Positions 16,347-43,347 of a DNA stretch of 64,000 nucleotides are shown here, piece by piece. Made by a program: the position numbers and the translations under genes. Position 1 is the stretch's first letter. Each line of letters begins with the position of its first letter. Source of the stretch: an uncultured Bacteroidota bacterium (GTDB lineage Bacteria; Bacteroidota; Bacteroidia; B-17B0; Aurantibacillaceae); assembly GCA_903834765.1 (NCBI GenBank), contig CAILKE010000043.1, positions 62,001 through 126,000 of the forward strand, given 5' to 3'. The notes under the pieces were generated by a model. The model ran no database searches, was not told the origin of the DNA, and was given only the letters and a program-made list of their open reading frames with translations.

Positions 16347-18815
16347 ATTCTGTACAATCCTCAACACATATCAAAAATTATAGGCGCCAAACTCATTGGC
16401 GAACATAAAAATTCTATTAAACATTTATTGATAGATAGTAGGCAATTAACTGACCCAAATCATACGCTTTTTATAGCATTGGTAACAAGTCGTAATGATG
16501 CGCATCAATACATCTTAGAGTTATATAAAAAAGGTGTTACTGTTTTTTTAGTCAATCATATTCCAGATAATTGTAAAGGTTTAGGAGAAGATATTTGTTT
16601 TTTAGTCGTGGAGGATACACTTCTTGCACTTCAAAAATTGGCGACTTATCATAGAGATCAATTCAGAATCCCAGTAATAGGAATTACAGGGAGCAATGGA
16701 AAAACAATTGTAAAGGAGTGGCTTTATCAACTATTAAAAGAGGATTATAACATTTGTCGCAGTCCCAAAAGCTTTAACTCTCAAGTTGGTGTTCCACTTT
16801 CGCTTTGGCAGTTAAATCAACAACATACTTTAGGTATTTTTGAAGCAGGTATTTCTGAAGTTGGAGAAATGGCAATTCTTAATCAGCTTATTAAACCATC
16901 GATTGGCGTGCTTACTTCTTTAGGATCAGCTCATGATGAAGGTTTTGAAGGACCAGAAGAAAAGCTAAAAGAAAAATTACAATTATTTTCACACTGCCAA
17001 TCAGTAATTGTAAATGCGCTTTCCATAGATGATCAGCAAATCAATACAATCAATAAAGAGTATATGTTGATTTCTAAATCAACAGAAGCAACGCTTCAGG
17101 TGTTAGAAATAGAAAATTTATTTACACATACAGTTATTAGTGCAATATATCATAACGAGCACATAAGCATTCATATTCCCTTTACAGATGCGGCAAGTGT
17201 TGATAACGCCGTTACCTGCTGGGCCGTATTATTGCACCTTAAGGTTCCGCAACAGGAAATAGAAAAGCGTATGTTAGTGTTACAAGCAGTAGCTATGCGT
17301 TTAGAATTAAAATTAGGGAATAACAATTGCATCTTAATTAATGATTTTTATAATTCCGATATTAATGCTTTGGAAATAGCACTGCATCATCAAAAGCAAC
17401 AACATCGGGGAGGAAAAAAAGTAGTTATTTTATCAGACATCGAGCAGAGTGGAAAATTAAGTGGTGAATTATACCACAGTGTTGCTGAGCTATTGGCTCA
17501 ATTTCATATAGATACTATTATCGGTATTGGGAAAGAAATCTCTTCTCAAAAAAGCTTTTTTAAATTGAATGCTCATTTTTTTGAAAACACATCTGCATTT
17601 ATATTAGAAAGCAAAACTAATTCTGATTTACAATTTACAAATAGTATTATTCTTTTGAAAGGTGCTCGCAGCTTTGGATTTGAAGCTATTAGTAAATTAT
17701 TACAACAAAAAAGCCACGATACAGTTTTAGAAATTAATTTGAATAAATTAATTCATAATATAAATTTTTACCGCACACAAATAAAGAAGGAAACCAAATT
17801 AATGTGTATGGTAAAAGCTACAGGTTATGGAAGTGGTAGTACAGAAATTGCATTTACATTACAACACCATCATGTCGATTATTTAGCGGTTGCTTATACC
17901 GATGAGGGCGTGGAGCTTCGTAAAGCTGGTATACATTTACCAATTATGGTAATGAGTCCTGAAGAATCAGGTTACGACGACATGATAGAATATCGATTGG
18001 AGCCGGAAATTTATTCTTTTAAAGTTGCAAACGAATTTTTGAAAGCACTGCAAAATAAGGCAATTTCAGAACCTTACCCTATTCATATCAAATTAGATAC
18101 TGGCATGCGTCGATTAGGATTTGAAGAAGATCAAACTTCGGAGTTGTGCGCATGGCTTCAAAAAGAAACATCATTACATGTAAAAAGTATTTTCTCGCAT
18201 TTAGTAGGTAGTGACGATAAGGCTTTCGATGACTTCACACAGGCTCAAATTTCTTCTTTCGATAAGCAGGCAACTCAAATTGAACAGGCTATTGGCTATA
18301 ACGCTATTAAACATATTTGTAATTCAGGAGCCATCACTCGCTTTAAACATGCACAATACAATATGGTACGATTAGGTATTGGCATGTACGGTATAGGGTT
18401 TAACCCCCTTGAACAACAGAACTTACAGAACATTAGTTCTCTTAAAACAAAAATATCGCAAATTAAACAAGTTCCGGTAGGCGAAACCATTGGGTATAGC
18501 CGAAAAGGGTTGGTAACGAAACCAACTACCATTGCTACTATCCCCATAGGGTATGCCGATGGCTTTAATAGAAATTTAGGGAATGGCAATTTTTCGGTTT
18601 CAATCAATCAGGTGTTGTGCCCAACCATTGGAAACATTTGCATGGACATGTGTATGGTTGACATTACAGCTGTTTCTTGTAAAGAAGGCGATGAGGTTGT
18701 TATTTTTGACACGAATGAACAATTGTTGAATCTTTCAAAAGCAATGAATACAATACCTTACGAGGTTTTAACGAGTATTTCAACCCGTGTAAAAAGAGTG
18801 TATGTTCAGGAGTAA
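16323..18815 (+). CDS. Bifunctional UDP-MurNAc-tripeptide:D-Ala-D-Ala ligase / alanine racemase (MurF-Alr)
   Basis: This fused enzyme carries out two steps of peptidoglycan precursor synthesis: Alr makes D-alanine, and MurF adds D-Ala-D-Ala. The Mur ligase half (residues about 10-455) has the P-loop GITGSNGKT. The racemase half (about 460-830) has the PLP lysine in MVKATGYGSG (residue 498). The fusion is usual in Bacteroidota, and the racemase half lacks nothing obvious. The start is uncertain. TTG 16323 lies inside the terminator hairpin, and no ATG occurs before the conserved region. CTG 16350 would give MYNPQHISKII, which fits family N-termini best. The 3' end overlaps the next gene by 14 bp. 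Confidence 0.9.
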   Translation: MYKINHFFILYNPQHISKIIGAKLIGEHKNSIKHLLIDSRQLTDPNHTLFIALVTSRNDAHQYILELYKKGVTVFLVNHIPDNCKGLGEDICFLVVEDTLLALQKLATYHRDQFRIPVIGITGSNGKTIVKEWLYQLLKEDYNICRSPKSFNSQVGVPLSLWQLNQQHTLGIFEAGISEVGEMAILNQLIKPSIGVLTSLGSAHDEGFEGPEEKLKEKLQLFSHCQSVIVNALSIDDQQINTINKEYMLISKSTEATLQVLEIENLFTHTVISAIYHNEHISIHIPFTDAASVDNAVTCWAVLLHLKVPQQEIEKRMLVLQAVAMRLELKLGNNNCILINDFYNSDINALEIALHHQKQQHRGGKKVVILSDIEQSGKLSGELYHSVAELLAQFHIDTIIGIGKEISSQKSFFKLNAHFFENTSAFILESKTNSDLQFTNSIILLKGARSFGFEAISKLLQQKSHDTVLEINLNKLIHNINFYRTQIKKETKLMCMVKATGYGSGSTEIAFTLQHHHVDYLAVAYTDEGVELRKAGIHLPIMVMSPEESGYDDMIEYRLEPEIYSFKVANEFLKALQNKAISEPYPIHIKLDTGMRRLGFEEDQTSELCAWLQKETSLHVKSIFSHLVGSDDKAFDDFTQAQISSFDKQATQIEQAIGYNAIKHICNSGAITRFKHAQYNMVRLGIGMYGIGFNPLEQQNLQNISSLKTKISQIKQVPVGETIGYSRKGLVTKPTTIATIPIGYADGFNRNLGNGNFSVSINQVLCPTIGNICMDMCMVDITAVSCKEGDEVVIFDTNEQLLNLSKAMNTIPYEVLTSISTRVKRVYVQE

Positions 18816-20448
18816 TAATAAACTAAAAGACTCCGAACAATCTAATATAAAATACATTTTAGGTTTGTTTGTGGTTTTTGTTTGTTGTGAATTACTTTTG
18901 AATCCTATTGGTGATTTTCCATTAAATGATGATTGGTTTTATGCAAAGGCGCTAAAAACAATACAATTCGATAGTTACATTAATAATGCACATTGGGGAT
19001 ACGCATCAATGTTAACTCATCTTTTTTATGGTAAGCTGGTTACTACCATATTCGGATTTTCATATAATGTATTAAGAATGTCTACGCTTATATTATCTTT
19101 TACGGGCATAACTTTTTTTTATTTTTTAGTTAAAGAATATGTAGGAATGTTAAATAAACAAGCCTTTTTAGCAACATTAATTGTGATGGCTGACCCCTTA
19201 TTTTTAAGTCTATCAAATTCGTATATGACCGACGTTCCTTTTATAACAAGCATTATGATGGCGGTTTATTTTTATTTGAAATTCAAACGTTCTAATAAAT
19301 TAAAATATTATTGCCTTAGTGTTTTACTATTAATTTGGGCTTTATTAATTAGGCAATTAGCGTTAGCCTTTATCATAGGGTTATTTTTTTCAGATATCAT
19401 CTTAGAGAAAAAAATAACAGTTAAAAATATGCTATTAATTACGCTTTCATTATTAGTTTTATATCTGTTCGAAAGATGGCTTTATATAAGCAATGCAAAC
19501 ACCGGATATGCATACCTATTCTTTAGAACATCTACTACCGCTCGTTCTATAACAGTTCCTGAAATTGGTATTAATTTTTTAAAACGCTGGATACATTATG
19601 TGTCTTTTTCTGGGTTTGTATTGTTTCCTATTTTATTAACGTACCTATACCATTACATAAAACAAAAGTTGTTTTTTAATACTAAAAAACAATTTATTAT
19701 TTCTCTAATATTAATGATACCAGTGTCTTGGAGCCTGCGAAAATTTCCAATTGGAAATTACCTATACAACTGCGGTATTGGTCCTGATACGTTATATGAC
19801 ACATATATTTTAGGGATTAATTCGCAACACGCTCACGATCTCATTTTATTCGGCATTATCCGTGTTTTAGCATTTACTGGCTCATTCAGTTTATTATTAG
19901 TGTTAATTCAATTTGTTTTTAAAGTAATACACTGGCGCACGACTGATGTTTCAAAACACATTGTTTTGCTTATTTTAATTATCTCCTTGTTTTTTTACTA
20001 TTCATTTTTAGCCATTGCCAGCCCTATTTTCGATCGCTATATTATGATTTTTTCGATATTAATTATTCCAATTATCTTTTACATATACAATCCGCCTATA
20101 AAAGAAAAAATCATAGTAAGCATTCTTATTGTATTGCTAATGTTGTTTTCAGTTTTCGCAACCAAAGATTATTTTAATGGACACAGAACCATATGGAAAA
20201 TTATAAATGAATTAAAACAAACCGAGGGATTAACAGATACTGATATAAATGGCGGGTTAGAGCATTGCGCCTCATCTTTTGGAGATAGTGCTTTTTGGTT
20301 TAAAAAATGGAATAATATTCCGGAGAACAAATACGTGATAACGCGAGGGAAATTAATTAACTATCATGTTTATAAAAGCTATTATTATCAACGCTATATT
20401 CCATTGAAAACAGATACTATATTTGTATTAGCAAAAAATGAAAAATAA
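18802..20448 (+). CDS. GT-C-fold polytopic glycosyltransferase (ArnT/PMT-like)
   Basis: This 548-residue inner membrane protein has about ten or eleven transmembrane helices. The first periplasmic loop carries the acidic motif NDDWFYAKAL after DFPL. That is the position of the conserved Asp/Glu in GT-C enzymes, which use polyprenyl-phosphate sugars (GT39/GT83). The first helix is near residues 18-36 and the C-terminal 90 residues form a soluble tail. It overlaps murF-alr by 14 bp and the next gene by 11 bp, suggesting one transcript. The acceptor (lipid A, protein or glycan) is not shown by the sequence. Confidence 0.78.
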   Translation: MFRSNNKLKDSEQSNIKYILGLFVVFVCCELLLNPIGDFPLNDDWFYAKALKTIQFDSYINNAHWGYASMLTHLFYGKLVTTIFGFSYNVLRMSTLILSFTGITFFYFLVKEYVGMLNKQAFLATLIVMADPLFLSLSNSYMTDVPFITSIMMAVYFYLKFKRSNKLKYYCLSVLLLIWALLIRQLALAFIIGLFFSDIILEKKITVKNMLLITLSLLVLYLFERWLYISNANTGYAYLFFRTSTTARSITVPEIGINFLKRWIHYVSFSGFVLFPILLTYLYHYIKQKLFFNTKKQFIISLILMIPVSWSLRKFPIGNYLYNCGIGPDTLYDTYILGINSQHAHDLILFGIIRVLAFTGSFSLLLVLIQFVFKVIHWRTTDVSKHIVLLILIISLFFYYSFLAIASPIFDRYIMIFSILIIPIIFYIYNPPIKEKIIVSILIVLLMLFSVFATKDYFNGHRTIWKIINELKQTEGLTDTDINGGLEHCASSFGDSAFWFKKWNNIPENKYVITRGKLINYHVYKSYYYQRYIPLKTDTIFVLAKNEK

Positions 20449-21796
20449 ATTAAGTATTATATGGATATCTTTTGTTTTTTTTGGTTGTACTGAAAGCCAA
20501 CACTTGTCTGATATAAAACAAAACCCAACCTTTGTAGATATTGCTCCGATTATTTATAAGAACTGCACTCCTTGTCATAGAGCTGGAGAAAGCGGGCCGT
20601 TTGAATTAATGTCGTATGCTGATGCAAAAAAAAATGCAAACAAAATAAAATTTGTAACACAAGTCCATTATATGCCACCTTGGCCGGCTGATGCCAGTTA
20701 TACTCATTTTATTGGTGAACGCATACTTACAGCCGATGAAATAGAATTGATAAAACGCTGGGTTGATAATGGATCACTACAAGGTGATGAAGCAAAAACA
20801 CCAAAGGCACCATCGTTTTATTATGGTTCGTCATTAGGAAAACCTGATACTGTAATTCGATTTAACAGAGCGGTTCCTATTAAAGGAAATGGTGATGACC
20901 ATTTTTACATAGTTAAAATTCCAATGAAATTTGCAAAAGACACCTTTGTGCGTTACTTTGAATTTGTTCCAGATCAGCGTAAACTAGCGCATCACATCAA
21001 CGGCCATTTAATTAATTATGACGAAGAAAAGAAACAAGAATTACAGTCTGGTTTATCCTATGCGCTAGATGAATATAAAGATTATAAGCAATTATATGCG
21101 CAATTAAATATTTTAAATGATGATGGCACATTTCCTACGCTAACGCCTAATACAGTATATTATCTTCCAGGATACACACCTCCAAGATACCCTAACGAAA
21201 TTGGTGGTTATAAGGTCAACAAAACCTCAGCTATTTTTTTAAAGAGTATTCATTACGGCCCAAGCAATGCCGATGTATTAGATAGCTCGCACATTAATGT
21301 GTATTATGGCCCTAAACCTAAACGACCAATCAGAGAAACGCAATTGGGAACATTTGGTATTTCTAAAATTGAACCGGAATTTGTTTTACGTGCTAATCAA
21401 ATACAAACCTTTCATACGCAAGCAACATTAGATGCTGATATTTCTTTGCTGTCCGTTAATCCGCACATGCACTTATTGGGCAAAACTTTTTTGGCCTTCG
21501 CTATTAAACCCAATGGCGACACTATTCCTTTAATAAAAATAAAAAAATGGGATTTCAGATGGCAGTATTATTACACGTATCAGCATCCCATTAAAATTTC
21601 GGCAGGCACAACGATTCATGTATATGGCACGTTTGACAATACATCAAAAAATCCATTCAATCCCAATCATCCACCAAAACAGGTGGTTCAGGGTGAAGCT
21701 GTAAAAAGCATGAGAACCACTCAGGAAATGTTTCAATTTATTTTTTCTTATTTACCCTATCAAAATGGTGATGAGCAAATTGATTTGAGTAAATAA
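20438..21796 (+). CDS. Lipoprotein with one c-type haem site and a Cu-monooxygenase-like C-terminal domain
   Basis: This is a 452-residue protein with lipoprotein signal MKNKLSIIWISFVFFGC (Cys17). A mono-haem site, CTPCH, lies at about residues 43-47, within a short cytochrome-like domain ending near residue 115 (MPPWPADASY, ADEIELIKRWVDNG). The C-terminal region carries NPHMHLLGK and TTIHVYGTFDNTSKNPFNP. These resemble the C-terminal domain of copper type II ascorbate-dependent monooxygenases, where His-X-His binds copper. This combination recurs in Bacteroidota, often annotated only as a cytochrome. Catalysis has not been demonstrated. The gene overlaps the glycosyltransferase gene and is convergent with the following small gene. 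Confidence 0.78.
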   Translation: MKNKLSIIWISFVFFGCTESQHLSDIKQNPTFVDIAPIIYKNCTPCHRAGESGPFELMSYADAKKNANKIKFVTQVHYMPPWPADASYTHFIGERILTADEIELIKRWVDNGSLQGDEAKTPKAPSFYYGSSLGKPDTVIRFNRAVPIKGNGDDHFYIVKIPMKFAKDTFVRYFEFVPDQRKLAHHINGHLINYDEEKKQELQSGLSYALDEYKDYKQLYAQLNILNDDGTFPTLTPNTVYYLPGYTPPRYPNEIGGYKVNKTSAIFLKSIHYGPSNADVLDSSHINVYYGPKPKRPIRETQLGTFGISKIEPEFVLRANQIQTFHTQATLDADISLLSVNPHMHLLGKTFLAFAIKPNGDTIPLIKIKKWDFRWQYYYTYQHPIKISAGTTIHVYGTFDNTSKNPFNPNHPPKQVVQGEAVKSMRTTQEMFQFIFSYLPYQNGDEQIDLSK

Positions 21797-21812
21797 AATT
21801 GACAATTAATTT

Positions 21813-22289
21813 TCAATGCAACATTATATTCTTTCTTTTTGTTACTGCTATTTTTTCACTTTTCATAAATATGGAGCTTTTACTATTCCAATAATAGTAT
21901 AAATAAATTGTTTTTAAATCAATCGAAATCATTACTAACAAAGGATAATTTTCAGAATCAAACGTAAGTATGTTTAAATTGTTAGAATATCTTTTAGTGA
22001 TTGAGTTGTAATTTTTTGTGCGATAAATTTTGTCAATAGTATATTGAATGGAAATTGAATCTTGATCAACAAGATACGTAATTCCAATTTTTTTGCCAAT
22101 AGTATCAATAGCTATAGACCTATATTGTCCATTGATTGTATCAACTAAAGTTACCGCAGCTGTTGTAGGATGGTAATACGCATAACTTTCTACAGAACCT
22201 GTTGATACTGTTATAATTTGTGAGTAACCTGAGTTATATTTAAAAATAAACACAACGATAAAACAACTATAAACACATAATTTTTTCAT
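21813..22289 (-). CDS. Hypothetical exported protein
   Basis: This is 158 residues with a signal peptide or N-terminal anchor (MKKLCVYSCFIVVFIFKY then NSGYSQ, cleavage likely near residue 24). The rest is beta-strand rich and alternating hydrophobic, without cysteines or known motifs. It is the second gene of a two-gene minus-strand unit, 11 bp downstream of the next entry. I do not recognise a family. Confidence 0.6.
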   Translation of the reverse strand: MKKLCVYSCFIVVFIFKYNSGYSQIITVSTGSVESYAYYHPTTAAVTLVDTINGQYRSIAIDTIGKKIGITYLVDQDSISIQYTIDKIYRTKNYNSITKRYSNNLNILTFDSENYPLLVMISIDLKTIYLYYYWNSKSSIFMKSEKIAVTKRKNIMLH

Positions 22290-22300
22290 ACTATCAGAAA

Positions 22301-22762
22301 TTAAATATTAAAATAAACTGTTTTACCTAATACATAAACTTGGTAAGAAAAATCTTTTGATATTTCACCATACGTTTTTGTAACATTACTATAATTCAAT
22401 GTTGTCCAATAGGCAATAGCCTCATCTTTAAACGCAACAATTTTAATTTCATCTTGCCCAAAACGATTTGTTATAACTTCTATTTTTAAACTCATTCTTT
22501 TCCACGCCAAATTATCGCCATAGCCTTCTTCATAGAATCCTATTGCACGTGTTTCTAAGGCTATTGGCTGAGTAGGTTGCTGATACGAAGGCGTTTCAAC
22601 TTGCTGATAATTTGGATTGCTTTGGTTAGTATTTGTAGAATTCGAATTTTGTTTGGCAGGAACTGCTGGTTGCCATTGTACAGATGGATAATAATTAACT
22701 TGAGCAATAATGTGAGTGTAATTAGTTATTGCGATAGCAAATAGAATAATAGCTGATTTCAT
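22301..22762 (-). CDS. Hypothetical exported protein with a Gln/Asn/Pro-rich linker
   Basis: This is 153 residues. The signal peptide spans residues 1-20 (MKSAIILFAIAI, cleavage after HIIAQ). A low-complexity segment rich in Gln, Asn, Ser and Pro (residues about 30-66) is followed by a roughly 85-residue beta-rich domain ending in GKTVYFNI. No family is recognised. A perfect 11-bp inverted repeat lies directly upstream of the ATG, and one copy of a 27-bp direct repeat lies 48 bp upstream, so expression may be controlled. Confidence 0.6.
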   Translation of the reverse strand: MKSAIILFAIAITNYTHIIAQVNYYPSVQWQPAVPAKQNSNSTNTNQSNPNYQQVETPSYQQPTQPIALETRAIGFYEEGYGDNLAWKRMSLKIEVITNRFGQDEIKIVAFKDEAIAYWTTLNYSNVTKTYGEISKDFSYQVYVLGKTVYFNI

Positions 22763-22764
22763 GG

Positions 22765-22798
22765 GTGATTAGTTTAATGTTACGACAAAACTAATCAC
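22765..22798. promoter_or_regulatory. Perfect 11-bp inverted repeat, possible operator
   Basis: GTGATTAGTTT (22765-22775) and AAACTAATCAC (22788-22798) are exact inverse complements with a 12-nt spacer. They start 2 bp upstream of the ATG at 22762. There is no T-tract, so this is not a terminator. It could be a repressor site or a 5' UTR hairpin masking the start. Confidence 0.6.
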
Positions 22799-22809
22799 AC
22801 TATAAAGGT

Positions 22810-22836
22810 TTTACTAAAATTCGCAAGCTTGTTTTT
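22810..22836. repeat. Left copy of a 27-bp direct repeat
   Basis: TTTACTA, two variable bases (AA), then ATTCGCAAGCTTGTTTTT. The second copy at 26114-26140 matches at 25 of 27 positions. Between them lie three minus-strand genes of unknown function. It may be an attachment-site duplication, or a shared promoter/operator, since each copy sits 36-47 bp upstream of a minus-strand start. Confidence 0.75.
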
Positions 22837-22932
22837 TTAAATTATCTTCAAACCAAGGTCCACGATGACACAAATTCGCATAATGCTCTTATATTATTTA
22901 AAATATCTATCTGCCTAAAAATTGCAAGACAG

Positions 22933-23760
22933 TTAGACTAACTTTTTTATTAAATCAACTTCTAAATTTATTTTATATGGTTGCCCTGCACTACCTAATA
23001 TTTGGTATGGCAAAGCAATATTATCCCCTAACTCATCTTTAAATATTTTGTTGATTTTTGAGATTTTTTGGTGCAAGGAATCATTCGTTATATTCAATAA
23101 TTCATCAATTCTTTTGTTAATTATATCTTTTTCGGTATTGGGGCTTATACTTTGGTAAATTGAACGAAGTTCATTTGTATGATTACTGATTTCTTTTAAA
23201 GCGATGCCTTTTAAATGATTTAAAAACAAACAGTACACTAATTTTAGTAAGGGCTCTAATTTTATTTCTACATCATATAATGGCAGTGTAATTTTATATT
23301 TGGCATCAAATACTAATTCACTTAATACAATTGCTGGGGTTTGATATCGCTCATACCATCCTGTTCTATTAGATAGTGGTTCGCCTATATTAGCTTTGAG
23401 CTCAATTAATAGGCGTTTCAAAATGGCTGAAGGAGTGCCGTACTGAGCTTTATAGTTTGGTGTTGTTAAATACAATTGATCTGCATCTCCATTTAATACA
23501 TCTTTGAAGTTATGAAATACATGGCGTTTTTCTGAAGGAAACCATAAATATATAGAATGATGTTTGCCAATTTCTTCATTATTAAACTCTTCATTAGCAG
23601 AAAGTAAATTACCAATACTTTTATAAATCTTCTCGTCAAAATAAAGCCAGTTTTTAAAAATAAAAAAATCTTGGTTGTTTTGTTCATATTGTATATAAAC
23701 TCTGCCCCAAGTTTTTTCATGCATTTCGGTAACGTGTATTGATTTGATGGTAATTTGCAT
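22933..23760 (-). CDS. Hypothetical cassette protein A (275 aa)
   Basis: I do not recognise the N-terminal half, a mixed alpha/beta region starting MQITIKSIHV. The C-terminal roughly 100 residues (from LLKLVYCLFLNHLKGI through LRSIYQSISPNTEKD to YQILGSAGQPYKINL) resemble a helical, winged-helix-like module. I recall that module at the ends of other uncharacterised Bacteroidota proteins, so it may be a DNA-binding or partner-binding unit. There is no signal peptide or membrane helix. It is the last gene of a three-gene minus-strand set bounded by direct repeats. The TAG/TAA context and spacing (71 bp from the upstream gene) allow co-transcription. Confidence 0.6.
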   Translation of the reverse strand: MQITIKSIHVTEMHEKTWGRVYIQYEQNNQDFFIFKNWLYFDEKIYKSIGNLLSANEEFNNEEIGKHHSIYLWFPSEKRHVFHNFKDVLNGDADQLYLTTPNYKAQYGTPSAILKRLLIELKANIGEPLSNRTGWYERYQTPAIVLSELVFDAKYKITLPLYDVEIKLEPLLKLVYCLFLNHLKGIALKEISNHTNELRSIYQSISPNTEKDIINKRIDELLNITNDSLHQKISKINKIFKDELGDNIALPYQILGSAGQPYKINLEVDLIKKLV

Positions 23761-23831
23761 TTTAATATTTGAAATTTAATTATGGTGTATTTGATATTGT
23801 GGGACTATACGATTACAAATGTCAGGTTGTA

Positions 23832-25238
23832 TTAATCATGATTCCAATAAACTGTTTCTGAATCATCACCAAAATCCTTACGTAAATAATTCCAATCATC
23901 ATCTGTATTTCTCTGGGTGTCATCATCAGTATTCCAACGGCAATCAAAGTTATTGTTGTCAAAAAATGTTTGTGGTAAATTATTATTTATTTGTTCATTG
24001 TTGAAGCGATTTTTATTATCTTCCGGTAAATTGAAATTAGGATTAGCTTTCGTAATTTCATGCCATTTTTGATTTACAGATATGTCGCTTATTACAGATA
24101 GACCATATTCAATCAAATCATCAACACTATTTTTACTTTTAATAGCCTTTTCTTTTTTAATAACTCCAATAATGGAATTGAAGTGAAAAATTGGAGATCG
24201 TTTTCCGAATAAATCGAAAATAAATTTTCCGTCTACGCATTTAATATTCTTCCTTTGCATATCAGTTTTCAGCTTAAGATTTAATATTTCTAAAGGGATG
24301 CTTAACTTTATTTTTATGTCTTTGTAATAAATTTTATAATATATATCTTTTCTCCACGATGACAGATATGACTCATAATTTTCTAGTCGCTCTGTAAAAT
24401 CTAAAGAATTTTCAATATTTGAATTATTTATTTCACTTAGATCCTTGTAATCTTTAAATTCTCCATGACAATCCTCAATATTTAAAATATCATATATTTC
24501 GATCCTTGAACCATCTTTAAAATTTGCAGTTATTTTATCAAAATCATGTTTTAAAAATGAACTTAACCCTAATTTTTCGGCAATTATAAAAAATGCGTCT
24601 TCGATAGCAGTTCCCTCTTTTATTTCATGAAATATATGACCGTGATTTTTGAAGTTTTCATACCATCCGTTGTCGCTACGATTAAAGTCAATAAAGTTAC
24701 AATATACCAAAGAAAGAAGGTTGGTTGCGTCACAAAATATATCTATATCAGGAGTAGAATCAAAAGGGGAGATTTTATTATTATTAAAATTAACATATCC
24801 CAAATCTCTGCTACCTTCTTTTTCAAAGTATACTTCTTTAAATCTTTCATTTGAAAATAAATTATCGATTAATTCTTTTCGTTTTAATGAGTAGTTTTGT
24901 TTGTCAATAATTTCACTTTTAAATAATTTTAGTTTCCTATCCAGTTGAGTAAAGGATTTAAAATCAATAATATTACCTTCCTTATCCCTCTCTCTTAAAA
25001 AAGAGTTTACTTTAAGTATATATTCTTCAAAAATAAAATTTGCATTTTTGATATTATGTAACTCGTCAATTTTTGACACCTCCCATTCCTTATGTTTAGG
25101 TGTATAAATACAATTCGATAATTGATTTAAAGATAGACTATATGCACCAGCATATGATGAAATGCTGCCATTATAAGAATTATAGTTTAAAAATGGGTTG
25201 ATACCAAATCTATTAATAAGCGTTTGATAATTTATCAT
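23832..25238 (-). CDS. Hypothetical cassette protein B (468 aa, acidic Asp/Asn-rich tail)
   Basis: ATG 25238 is preferred over an upstream TTG at 25268. The protein is predicted soluble, rich in Lys, Asn, Asp and aromatic residues, with no signal peptide. A segment around residues 195-245 (DNGWYENFKNHGHIFHEI, GTAIEDAFFIIAEKLG) and the final acidic tail (WNTDDDTQRNTDDDWNYL) are distinctive, but I cannot match them to a known family. The DNA is visibly more AT-rich than its neighbours, which fits acquired DNA. It is the largest gene of the direct-repeat-bounded cassette. Confidence 0.6.
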   Translation of the reverse strand: MINYQTLINRFGINPFLNYNSYNGSISSYAGAYSLSLNQLSNCIYTPKHKEWEVSKIDELHNIKNANFIFEEYILKVNSFLRERDKEGNIIDFKSFTQLDRKLKLFKSEIIDKQNYSLKRKELIDNLFSNERFKEVYFEKEGSRDLGYVNFNNNKISPFDSTPDIDIFCDATNLLSLVYCNFIDFNRSDNGWYENFKNHGHIFHEIKEGTAIEDAFFIIAEKLGLSSFLKHDFDKITANFKDGSRIEIYDILNIEDCHGEFKDYKDLSEINNSNIENSLDFTERLENYESYLSSWRKDIYYKIYYKDIKIKLSIPLEILNLKLKTDMQRKNIKCVDGKFIFDLFGKRSPIFHFNSIIGVIKKEKAIKSKNSVDDLIEYGLSVISDISVNQKWHEITKANPNFNLPEDNKNRFNNEQINNNLPQTFFDNNNFDCRWNTDDDTQRNTDDDWNYLRKDFGDDSETVYWNHD

Positions 25239-25423
25239 GACATTATATTTAATTGGTTGTAAATACAATTATATTATATTCAGGTAAAGTAATTGTATTT
25301 TATCACCTTAAAGCTAATAAAATTTCTTGCATAGTTAGGCTACTAATAATAGATTTTGATACTAAATTTAGTACAAGGTCTAGTTTTATTGATTCAAAAT
25401 AAAATATTTTATAATTTACTTAT

Positions 25424-26077
25424 TTACCTCCATTCCTCCTCACTTAATCTATCTGCCTCTGCTTTCGTATAACCCTTATCAATATAGCTTTTATAGATTT
25501 CATAACGCTTTTCGTAACCATGTTTGTTGATGGTGTTTTTAAATTTATAGCAAAATTTTATTTGTGTTATTTTTCCGTTTTTAACTATAAAATCTAAACC
25601 ACCTTTTAGTGCATTTTCAATATTATTTACCTTCCATGGAAACTTTCCATCATTATAAATAACGACTGTTTTGCCTAAGGAACAACCTGCGCAGGTGTCC
25701 ATATCCACACTTATTACACTTTCGGTTTGTAGTTTAAAACGTAGCCAGTTTACATATTGTCCTTTCATAACCGCAACGGTTTCAAAGGTTTTATTAATTA
25801 CTATAAAAGCGCCATCGTTATCTAACAAATTTGAAAGAGCCTTTAAGTCTTTGGCTATTAAGGCATTTGTAAAGGCTTCAATTACTTTCTGTGGGTTTTT
25901 AGTGATATCAAATGCCTTAGCTAAACTTGGTTTGGGTTCAGGTTCTTTATCAATAGTTGGCTCTTCAACGGTTTTTGCTTTCGTTAATAGTTCGGTTAAT
26001 GGTTTAAGTGAAATTTTTGTTAAAGGCTTTTGTTGTTCCTTAACTGGGGCAGTTGTTCTGAAAGAATGCGTTGTCAT
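25424..26077 (-). CDS. Hypothetical cassette protein C (217 aa, possible NTF2-like domain)
   Basis: This is the first gene of the cassette, starting at ATG 26077. Residues 1-60 are a Pro/Lys/Glu-rich disordered leader. Residues about 62-185 (VIEAFTNALIAKDLKALSNLL, then a strand-rich part with MDTCAGCSLGKTVVIYNDG) look like an NTF2/SnoaL-like small alpha+beta domain, with a CxxC pair at about residues 128-131. The C-terminal helix contains YTKAEADRLSEEEW. There is no signal peptide. The function and the NTF2 assignment are tentative. Confidence 0.6.
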   Translation of the reverse strand: MTTHSFRTTAPVKEQQKPLTKISLKPLTELLTKAKTVEEPTIDKEPEPKPSLAKAFDITKNPQKVIEAFTNALIAKDLKALSNLLDNDGAFIVINKTFETVAVMKGQYVNWLRFKLQTESVISVDMDTCAGCSLGKTVVIYNDGKFPWKVNNIENALKGGLDFIVKNGKITQIKFCYKFKNTINKHGYEKRYEIYKSYIDKGYTKAEADRLSEEEWR

Positions 26078-26113
26078 AATTTTATATTATAAAATTATAC
26101 ATAGTCTTTTCAG

Positions 26114-26140
26114 TTTACTATTATTCGCAAGCTTGTTTTT
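26114..26140. repeat. Right copy of the 27-bp direct repeat
   Basis: TTTACTA, two variable bases (TT), then ATTCGCAAGCTTGTTTTT, matching 22810-22836 at 25 of 27 positions. It lies 36 bp upstream of the cassette's first gene and about 90 bp upstream of rsmI on the other strand. Joining the two copies would place the 22301-22762 gene divergently beside rsmI. Confidence 0.75.
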
Positions 26141-26211
26141 ATATATTTCCGGGTAGAGACTAATTAATTTACATCATTACCTTATTGAATTTTCCAAAAC
26201 AAAAAAAGCAG

Positions 26212-26219
26212 TATATTTA
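26212..26219 (+). promoter_or_regulatory. Putative -7 box (TATATTTA) of rsmI
   Basis: TATATTTA lies 11 nt upstream of the rsmI ATG at 26231. The same octamer precedes lgt at 60002-60009. The -33 element is not clear. Confidence 0.35.
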
Positions 26220-26230
26220 GTGTATATATT

Positions 26231-26944
26231 ATGACACCAAAACTATACATAGTTCCTACCCCTATTGGGAATTTAGAAGACATGACTTTTAGAGCCGTAA
26301 CGGTTTTAAAATCGGTGGATTTGATATTAGCGGAAGACACTCGTAATACCATTCATTTGCTGAGGCATTTTCAAATTGAAAAACCCTTGCGTTCTTACCA
26401 TGCACATAACGAACACAAAACAGTAGAGCAAATTGTTGAACTAATAAGTTCTAATAAATCGGTGGCATTAGTTTCTGATGCCGGCACCCCCGCCATTTCT
26501 GATCCAGGGTTTTTATTAGTACGCGAGTGCATTAAACAAAACGTAGCTGTTGAAACATTACCTGGCGCTACTGCCTTTGTGCCGGCATTAGTGAACAGTG
26601 GCTTACCTTGTGATAGTTTTGTGTTTTATGGATTCTTGCCACAAAAAAAAGGACGACACACCAAACTGCTTTCATTAAAAGACGAAACGCGTACTATGAT
26701 TTTTTATGAATCACCATTTCGTTTAGTAAAATTATTAGAAGAGTTTAAAGAATACTTAAGTGCTGATAGGCAAGTATCAGTATCTCGTGAGCTTTCTAAA
26801 TTATTTGAAGAAACAGCTCGTGGTACTGTAGATGAGCTCATTGCGCACTTTACGACTAAAACTGTGAAAGGAGAAATTGTGGTTGTGTTGGCTGGTAAAG
26901 AAGAAAAGTCTTCGGAGAAATTATCTTTAAGAGACCGATATTAA
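26231..26944 (+). CDS. rsmI: 16S rRNA (cytidine1402-2'-O)-methyltransferase
   Basis: This SAM-dependent enzyme methylates the ribose of C1402 in the ribosomal decoding centre. The 237-residue chain carries the tetrapyrrole-methylase-fold signatures PTPIGNLEDMTFRA (residues 8-21), LAEDTRNT, SDAGTPAISDPGF and PGATAFVPALVNSGL. The length is slightly shorter than the E. coli protein because the C-terminal extension is brief. It is transcribed alone. The assignment is secure. Confidence 0.94.
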   Translation: MTPKLYIVPTPIGNLEDMTFRAVTVLKSVDLILAEDTRNTIHLLRHFQIEKPLRSYHAHNEHKTVEQIVELISSNKSVALVSDAGTPAISDPGFLLVRECIKQNVAVETLPGATAFVPALVNSGLPCDSFVFYGFLPQKKGRHTKLLSLKDETRTMIFYESPFRLVKLLEEFKEYLSADRQVSVSRELSKLFEETARGTVDELIAHFTTKTVKGEIVVVLAGKEEKSSEKLSLRDRY

Positions 26945-27030
26945 ACAAACCTTGTTGTAATATCAAATACATTTGTTAAACAGTTTAATGTCGGTTCGAG
27001 TCACGCATTGTGCGTGAAGAACTAATTATT

Positions 27031-27057
27031 TCATCTCGACTTCGCTCGATGTGACAA
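27031..27057. repeat. Stem-loop repeat R3 (variant core TCGACTTCGCTC)
   Basis: CATC (27032-27035) and GATG (27048-27051) enclose a 12-nt loop TCGACTTCGCTC, followed by TGACAAAA. It has the same layout as R1 and R2 at the GIY-YIG gene with one base change in the loop, but here there is no adjacent GIY-YIG gene. It lies in the 271-bp gap after rsmI, which also holds a short CACGCA/TGCGTG hairpin at 27002-27016. Confidence 0.7.
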
Positions 27058-27106
27058 AAATACAAATAGGAATCTTTGAATTTATAATTGTCATTAAATT
27101 ACAGAA

Positions 27107-42372: not shown

Positions 42373-43347
42373 TTAAGGATGCGATTTATCAATTGAGATT
42401 TGGAAAAGGCTTCCAGATGGTTTGTTATCAGAGACACTAACAAGTGCATGATGTGTGTTGCAAATTTGTTTGACGATGAACAAACCAATACCTGTGCCTT
42501 TTGTTTTTCGAGTTTCCTCGTTACCACTTCTGTAAAATTTTTCAAATATTTTTTGTTTTTCAGAATCAGGGATGCCACAACCTTTATCGGCAACTTCAAA
42601 CAACACAGTGTTATTTTCAGCTTTTAAAGTAAGAATTACTTCCAGTGTTTCATAAGAATATTTAATGGCGTTTTCAACTAAATTGATTATGACTGAGGGT
42701 AATAAATCCTTATCTCCTTTTATGAAAATGTTTGGCTCGATAATTAATTTAATCCACTTGTTTTCAAGATACATCTCAAAATACCTTTCAACAGTTTGTT
42801 CTATGAGTTCGCTTAAATTAACGGGTGTTAAATGAGATGAACTGTTTTTGTTTTCAACCTGTGTTACTAGCAACACGTTGTCAACTAATTTATGTAAACG
42901 ATCTGTTTCTTTGAGGGCACTATTAAGTAGTTGAATTTGTTTTTCCCTATCAAGTTCATGCTTTAGCAGGGTTTGTAATTGTAACTTTGATGAAGCTATT
43001 GGTGTTTTTAGTTCGTGCGATACGCTCAGTATAAAATTATTTTGTTGTGTGGCTAATTCATTTTCTTTACGAATGGATTTTCGTACTTGATTAATCCCAA
43101 ATAATAAAATTAATAAAAACACAGTGCCTTCACCAACAGTCATGTATAGACGCAAAGTCTTTTTGTGCTCCAAAGCCTCAATGTCACGCATAATCAGGGC
43201 ATCATCCGTTGATGATAATGCAGCCAAATGTTGTTTTTCTGAAATAATTTCGTTGGACTGTCTTACTAATAAAACTTCCCACCACAAAAACTGTAACACA
43301 ATATAACTAACAAGTATAGAAAATATTATGGTGGTTCTTTTCGACAT
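42373..43347 (-). CDS. Sensor histidine kinase without adjacent response regulator
   Basis: This is a 324-residue kinase. One membrane helix is at about residues 7-28 and a second at about 66-85, with only a 40-residue periplasmic loop between, so it likely senses a membrane signal or partner. The HisKA box SVSHELKTPIA has the phospho-accepting His111. The ATPase domain has NLVENAIKYS, DKGCGIPDSE and GTGIGLFIVK. It is separated by 1 bp from the upstream adhesin-like gene and by 3 bp from the binding protein gene, so it is part of the same operon. Its regulator is elsewhere. Confidence 0.88.
   Translation of the reverse strand: MSKRTTIIFSILVSYIVLQFLWWEVLLVRQSNEIISEKQHLAALSSTDDALIMRDIEALEHKKTLRLYMTVGEGTVFLLILLFGINQVRKSIRKENELATQQNNFILSVSHELKTPIASSKLQLQTLLKHELDREKQIQLLNSALKETDRLHKLVDNVLLVTQVENKNSSSHLTPVNLSELIEQTVERYFEMYLENKWIKLIIEPNIFIKGDKDLLPSVIINLVENAIKYSYETLEVILTLKAENNTVLFEVADKGCGIPDSEKQKIFEKFYRSGNEETRKTKGTGIGLFIVKQICNTHHALVSVSDNKPSGSLFQISIDKSHP

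What the first reader, a model, noticed from the sequence alone, without database searches (positions are those of the whole stretch)
22810..26140. 3.3-kb cassette between 27-bp direct repeats (25/27 identical)
Copies at 22810-22836 and 26114-26140 enclose exactly three same-strand genes of unknown function in AT-rich DNA. Removing the segment would leave a simple divergent pair (22301-22762 and rsmI). No integrase is inside, so it would be a passive or decayed element. The alternative is that the repeat is a shared promoter/operator, since each copy precedes a minus-strand gene start by 36-47 bp.
Basis: partly seen in the sequence, partly recalled or inferred. Interest (0 to 1): 0.68.

Follow-up and report, generated by a model that had tools for sequence, protein, structure and literature searches.

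The report
Orphan gene islet with repeated promoters
The two matching repeats are real, but they most likely are a shared on/off control element in front of two gene groups of a small, lineage-specific five-gene insertion, rather than the edges of a mobile cassette.

Summary
The 27-bp repeats are real (25/27, 18 identical in a row) and unlikely by chance; the genome holds no third copy within 3 mismatches. In 17 of 17 same-genus loci that keep the neighbourhood, the cytochrome-like gene and rsmI are about 9-604 bp apart. Against the nearest relative, window 21803-26187 (4,385 bp, five minus-strand genes) is extra. The repeats lie inside it, 1,007 and 47 bp from its borders, and none of these 17 loci holds a repeat. 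Both repeats sit 16 nt upstream of a TAnnTTT box (Bacteroidota -7 element), spanning about -55 to -29 of two predicted starts. The islet encodes a protein with a predicted OmpR/PhoB-type winged helix, an NTF2-like protein and orphans. That first protein is a candidate local regulator, but the repeats lack tandem half-sites, so this step is weak. No integrase was recognised. Verdict: a lineage-specific orphan islet with two look-alike promoters, of modest interest. A nested second insertion between the repeats is unsupported but not excluded, since no genome searched has the outer genes alone.

The parts
21803..26187 (.). 4,385-bp islet absent from the syntenic site in relatives (borders by alignment with the nearest relative, good to a few bases; ATTGA at both junctions)
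   Evidence: alignment of the G001 site with the window; 17 of 17 syntenic loci
22810..22836 (-). repeat copy L, read here as operator/upstream promoter element of the u153-u158 unit
26114..26140 (-). repeat copy R, read here as operator/upstream promoter element of the c217-c468-c275 unit
22786..22793 (-). TAGTTTTG, -7 box candidate of u153 (16 nt downstream of repeat L)
   Evidence: TAnnTTTG found in 7 of 34 upstream regions sense, 1 of 34 antisense
26090..26097 (-). TAATTTTA, -7 box candidate of c217 (16 nt downstream of repeat R, same register)
   Evidence: this weaker form TAnnTTTA is hardly over-represented (13 of 34 sense, 10 of 34 antisense)
21813..22289 (-). u158: orphan, N-terminus looks like a signal peptide (read by eye)
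22301..22762 (-). u153: orphan, N-terminus looks like a signal peptide (read by eye)
22933..23760 (-). c275: N-terminal part (1-139) found alone in a type I restriction locus, plus C-terminal predicted OmpR/PhoB-type winged helix (about 146-268)
23832..25238 (-). c468: orphan, fold not predicted (ATG start taken; a TTG start at 25268 is possible)
25424..26077 (-). c217: predicted NTF2/SnoaL-like fold (about 56-185), distant relatives in one other genome
26231..26944 (+). rsmI, right neighbour, conserved flank
   Evidence: TP_methylase Pfam hit
20438..21796 (+). cyt452 (my label, no NCBIfam hit), left neighbour, conserved flank

Best explanation
A 4.4-kb block of five orphan or near-orphan genes was inserted in this lineage between the cytochrome-like gene and rsmI, leaving the last 43 bp upstream of rsmI intact. 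It carries two transcription units on the minus strand, u153-u158 and c217-c468-c275. Each starts from a Bacteroidota sigma-A type promoter whose upstream part, from about -55 to -29, is the same 27-bp element. The element most likely is a shared operator, so that one DNA-binding protein switches both units together. The candidate regulator is c275, encoded in the islet. Shown by computation: repeats, empty site, islet borders, common register with the -7 boxes, predicted folds. Inferred: that the boxes are used as promoters, that the genes form these units, that the element is a protein-binding site, that c275 is the protein that binds it, and that the islet was gained rather than lost many times.
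For: Repeats above chance and, within 3 mismatches, unique to this locus in the genome. Both lie in 5' intergenic DNA of minus-strand genes. The only TAnnTTT in the 110 nt upstream of u153 and of c217 is at the same offset from the repeat, and it lies outside the repeat (0.15% of 200,000 composition shuffles put such a box in a common register). Beyond the repeat the two upstream regions are otherwise no more alike than shuffles (15 of 36, P 0.14). TAnnTTTG is over-represented in the 34 upstream regions tested in this window (7 sense, 1 antisense, shuffle mean 1.8) and is the sigma-A -7 box, at -12 to -5, in a flavobacterial transcription-start map (PMC9723704, passages seen). The empty site shows the islet is one block larger than the repeat interval. 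c275 is predicted to be DNA-binding: the first 39 of the 50 rows listed are winged helices that I know as OmpR/PhoB-type, best Z 8.5, 2.5 A over 88 residues.
Against: The c217 box is TAATTTTA, one base off the consensus, and that form is hardly over-represented (TAnnTTTA 13 of 34 sense, 10 antisense; any TAnnTTT 24 against 16). The register test is post hoc. A sigma-70-like site (CTGAAA-16-TATAAT, 26113-26086) also fits just downstream of copy R and a different one overlaps copy L, so the boxes could be read otherwise. No transcription data. Each repeat copy has no tandem 7-mer half-sites at 10-12 nt (best 4 of 7, reached by 96-98% of shuffles), although OmpR/PhoB response regulators bind direct repeats (PMC4832192, passages seen). 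Its CAAGCTTG palindrome is not significant (P 0.24 and 0.14). So c275 as the binder is weakly supported. Its fold call rests on Z values of which the tool says that under 8 may be only a common arrangement, and Foldseek gave nothing at E 0.001. The 185-nt gap between c217 and c468 may hold a separate promoter.
Confidence: 0.6

Rival explanations
1. Mobile or decayed passive cassette: the three genes were inserted by recombination at a site that is now duplicated as the two repeats (attL/attR-like), inside or together with an older u153-u158 insertion.
For: Direct repeats in the same orientation that enclose three whole genes; AT-rich, orphan content.
Against: The empty-site borders are 1,007 and 47 bp away from the repeats and none of 17 syntenic loci carries a copy. 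No integrase or transposase was recognised among the five genes, no other copy of the 27-mer within 3 mismatches in the genome, no exact 18-mer in viral contigs. It does not explain the common register of the -7 boxes outside the repeats.
Confidence: 0.12
2. Duplicated promoter without a shared regulator: a 5' region was copied when a second gene group joined the islet, and identity persists through recency or because it is a strong upstream promoter element.
For: Same facts as the best explanation; by the spacing used here the element covers the -33 region.
Against: Bases just downstream of the repeat are no more alike than shuffles (15 of 36, P 0.14), so a recent copy of the whole promoter is unlikely.
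Confidence: 0.2
3. Chance similarity in AT-rich DNA.
For: An unrelated 18-mer pair also occurs in the 64-kb window, and 5 of 1000 islet shuffles hold an 18-nt repeat.
Against: 0 of 300 shuffles reach 25 of 27; position and register agree.
Confidence: 0.05

Closest known systems
Strain-specific genomic islets (small insertions between conserved genes)
   Same: Block absent from the 17 syntenic relative loci examined, low GC, orphan genes, intact flanking genes
   Different: No mobility gene recognised, no tRNA beside it; only a 5-bp ATTGA at both junctions, no clear terminal repeats by eye
OmpR/PhoB-type winged-helix regulators (for example the DNA-binding domain of SaeR, 4ixa, and the OmpR/PhoB homologue 1kgs)
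   Same: Predicted fold of c275 residues 146-268 (4ixa Z 8.5, 2.5 A, 88 residues; 1kgs Z 8.3)
   Different: The N-terminal half is not recognisable as a receiver domain; it is a domain seen alone in a type I restriction locus
PADLOC family CARF5
   Same: c275 residues 156-271 match positions 232-347 of 351 of the model (E 5.5e-7)
   Different: No match to the rest of the model; the shared part is the C-terminal domain
NTF2/SnoaL-like proteins
   Same: Predicted fold of c217 (83 PDB matches at E 0.001 or better; Z up to 11.4)
   Different: Among the genomes searched, sequence relatives at useful similarity only in G049; role unknown

Membership tests
Site-specific passive cassette bounded by the repeats | Repeats coincide with the borders of the empty site | tested here: not met
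   Borders 21803 and 26187 against repeats at 22810 and 26140
Site-specific passive cassette bounded by the repeats | Empty site keeps one repeat copy | tested here: not met
   No TTCGCAAGCTTG or GCAAGCTTG in 17 syntenic relative loci; a relative lacking only the inner 3.3 kb was not found
Site-specific passive cassette bounded by the repeats | Integrase or transposase in the element (or a helper elsewhere) | tested here: inconclusive
   None recognised among the islet genes by Pfam, PADLOC, PHROGs, NCBIfam; helpers elsewhere in the genome not searched
Bacteroidota sigma-A promoter | TAnnTTTG -7 box a short way upstream of the gene | tested here: inconclusive
   Exact for u153, 1 base off for c217, and the weaker form is common by chance
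Bacteroidota sigma-A promoter | Transcription starts there | not testable with these tools
   No RNA data
OmpR/PhoB-type regulator (c275) | Winged-helix DNA-binding domain | tested here: met
   Predicted structure, pLDDT mostly above 90 in this part; first 39 of 50 listed rows of this kind, Z 8.5 to 6.0. Weaker signs: Foldseek nothing at E 0.001; Trans_reg_C matched 1 of 25 members, E 0.011
OmpR/PhoB-type regulator (c275) | Receiver or other sensor domain at the N-terminus | tested here: inconclusive
   N-terminal half partly low confidence; no Pfam family hit for it
OmpR/PhoB-type regulator (c275) | Binding sites are tandem half-sites | tested here: not met
   Repeat copies have no tandem half-sites, so the claim that c275 binds them is not filed as established
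Genomic islet | Absent at the same site in relatives | tested here: met
   17 of 17 syntenic loci
NTF2-like superfamily (c217) | NTF2-like alpha+beta fold | tested here: met
   Predicted model, mean pLDDT 68.2 (two of five models at 67-68, the others 40-50); matches

The most novel reading that the evidence does not exclude
c275 founds a new type of one-component regulator, a restriction-associated sensor domain fused to an OmpR-type winged helix. It controls a self-contained islet through one operator copied in front of both of its transcription units, and the islet is an uncharacterised defence or conflict system.
Probability: 0.12. Interest if true: 0.55.

Novelty: new member of a known kind. 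Interest (0 to 1): 0.3.

Why it matters
It corrects a tempting reading: repeats that frame a few genes need not be recombination ends, and comparison with relatives shows the real insertion borders. It also points to a Bacteroidia protein family (matches to c275 in 27 of 345 genomes) whose C-terminal part is predicted to be an OmpR-type winged helix attached to different N-terminal parts. The N-terminal part of c275 itself occurs in a type I restriction locus elsewhere. If the islet is self-regulated, it would be a compact case of how newly arrived orphan genes come with their own control.

Tried and rejected
Mobile cassette ends at the repeats: rejected on the empty-site borders. A wider family of repeats in the genome: none within 3 mismatches; the 13-mer at G000:C57 was read in its surroundings and looks accidental. 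tRNA-linked integration: the only tRNA of the window is at 42955. RNA element: no Rfam match in 21500-27100. Sigma-70 -35/-10 reading of the repeat (TTGCGA-16-TATAGT at copy L): the pair does not recur at copy R, where another one (CTGAAA-16-TATAAT) lies just downstream, and the scan gave 40 sites against 31.0 (sd 6.5) in shuffles. Phage or plasmid origin: no match for c468 or c275 in phages, none for c468 or c217 in plasmids, one plasmid with the c275 C-domain only (surroundings), none of c468, c275, c217 in viral contigs, none of c217 or the c275 C-domain in genome contigs (these scans find close relatives only).

The c468 match in G228 lies in a glycosyltransferase-like frame (my reading of the translation) and is taken as chance. 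Weak c217 matches in G325 and G215 (2 of 394 other genomes) were dropped; G325 was looked at, G215 was not. Weak u158/u153 matches in 6 of 296 other genomes, E 2.6e-4 to 0.009, were not followed up. Foldseek on c275 gave no match at E 0.001 or better; the fold statement rests on the second-look alignment. A profile search of the C-domain against PDB sequences gave only three E 0.4 matches. The first alignment A1 placed the two N-domain relatives wrongly, so the model was built without them (A3, 22 rows). Rows dropped: L084, L089, L093 and L094 and the G627:C100 match were left out of A1, A2 and A3; L082, L090 and L091 were left out of A3 as well.

Literature: searches (listings seen); passages seen in PMC9723704 and PMC4832192. 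I make no claim that nothing is in print about this locus.

Full report
OBSERVATION. In dinucleotide shuffles of the 4.4-kb region an 18-nt direct repeat came up in 5 of 1000 and a 25/27 pair in 0 of 300. In the whole 3.63-Mb genome the 27-mer with up to 3 mismatches is found only at these two places. A 13-nt part of it occurs once more. Three minus-strand genes lie between the copies.

PRESENCE AND ABSENCE. I fetched 20 rsmI loci from 19 same-genus genomes. 17 of the 20, from 17 genomes, keep the order murF-alr, in two cases a gene like window 18802-20448, cyt452, rsmI (two of the 17, L042 and L052, are cut within murF-alr by the end of the stretch). The other three (L039, a second rsmI place in G005; L044; L053) lack cyt452 next to rsmI. 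None of the 20 has a match at E 0.001 to any of the five islet genes. At a limit of 10 the best is E 0.025. In the 17, the gap between cyt452 and rsmI is 9 to 604 bp, measured between matched ends, and none of these loci carries the repeat core. Against the nearest relative (G001, rsmI region 87% identical in DNA, the best of 59 other genomes) the window has 4,385 extra bases, 21803-26187, where the relative has 13. ATTGA stands at both junctions, which may be a short target duplication or microhomology. The missing block therefore holds five genes, not three, and the repeats lie 1,007 and 47 bp inside it. Gain in this lineage is the simplest reading, because every syntenic relative examined lacks it.

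GENES. u158, u153 and c468 are orphans in what was searched. c468: 0 of 59 other relatives and one chance match among 394 other genomes of the phylum. u153: 0 of 294 other class genomes. u158 and u153 together: 6 weak matches in 296 other genomes, none in the genus. c217: 1 of 59 other relatives (G049), 2 weak of 394 in the phylum. Its model is of the NTF2/SnoaL fold (mean pLDDT 68.2, 4-row alignment, three of five models much poorer; matches). c275 has two parts. In the genus 2 of 19 other genomes match it, over the C-terminal part only, and the own genome has a second such place. In the class 27 of 345 genomes match, own genome included; G674 and G661 match through the N-terminal part only, nearly all the others through the C-terminal part, next to other N-terminal sequences. 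The predicted structure of the C-terminal part is an OmpR/PhoB-type winged helix. Foldseek alone had no significant match and sequence profiles barely see it, so the assignment rests on one structural comparison. In that comparison the first 39 of 50 listed rows are, as I know these proteins, all of this kind, at Z 8.5 to 6.0, against 4.6 for the next row. The N-terminal part matches a 124-aa protein (36% identity) that stands next to a specificity subunit, a GIY-YIG-like protein (below Pfam's cut-off) and a type I restriction subunit in G674.

PROMOTER READING. Reading the minus strand, each repeat copy is followed after 16 nt by TAnnTTT: TAGTTTTG for u153, TAATTTTA for c217. It is the only such box in the 110 nt upstream of either gene. 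Composition shuffles of both stretches put such a box in a common register in 0.15% of trials. Of 50 called genes in the window, 34 had enough noncoding DNA upstream; TAnnTTTG is found in 7 of these 34 in the sense direction and 1 in the antisense direction, against 1.8 in shuffles. The weaker form seen at c217, TAnnTTTA, is not clearly enriched (13 against 10), nor TAnnTTT with any last base to the same degree (24 against 16). The literature gives TAnnTTTG at -12 to -5 as the sigma-A box of a flavobacterium (PMC9723704, passages). With that spacing the repeats span about -55 to -29 of both starts. Recombination ends give no reason for this shared register, since the boxes are outside the repeat. 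An operator or upstream promoter element does.

WHO BINDS IT. The element is unique to the islet within 3 mismatches, so a local regulator is the natural guess, and c275 is the only islet protein for which a DNA-binding fold was predicted (c468, u153 and u158 were not folded). Against this, OmpR/PhoB regulators bind tandem half-sites (PMC4832192, passages) and each copy has none. I give about one chance in three that c275 binds the repeats, and 0.6 that the repeats are a shared control element at all.

VERDICT. The thing is an ordinary kind of lineage-specific orphan islet with an attractive but untested regulatory layout. The one reading that could still save a nested cassette, a second insertion between the repeats into an older u153-u158 insertion, could not be tested, because no genome searched has the outer genes alone.

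Noticed in passing
L060 34-3085 (own genome, contig C63) and L059 (G005): A four-gene run, VWA domain, 340-aa protein with the same C-terminal domain as c275, TPR-like protein (by eye), family 25 glycosyl hydrolase, kept in the same order in two genomes of the genus.
   Followed up: partly
L038 3294-3582, L046 3692-4295, L050 8664-9037, L054 8843-8970; L042 2737-2881, L047 8871-9013, L056 3658-3829: The cyt452-rsmI gaps of 7 relatives hold two families of interspersed repeats, about 71-84% alike over some 70-150 bp, some also in other places of the loci: the gap tolerates insertions.
   Followed up: partly
window 18802-20448: A 548-aa membrane-protein-like gene (by eye) between murF-alr and cyt452, matched at this place in only 2 of the 17 syntenic relatives (L040, L046, 32-34% identity): a second accessory gene next door.
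   Followed up: no
L039 and L038 (G005 contig C58): Two rsmI genes on one 153-kb contig of G005, 97 kb apart: duplication or chimeric assembly.
   Followed up: no
L092 805-2553: 582-aa protein that joins a c275-N-like domain to a stretch weakly like DUF1643, below Pfam's cut-off.
   Followed up: no
window 22767-22796: 9-bp dyad GATTAGTTT...AAACTAATC just upstream of the u153 start codon, overlapping the -7 box candidate (read by eye).
   Followed up: no
L062 1449-3350: Tandem relatives of c217 in G049.
   Followed up: no
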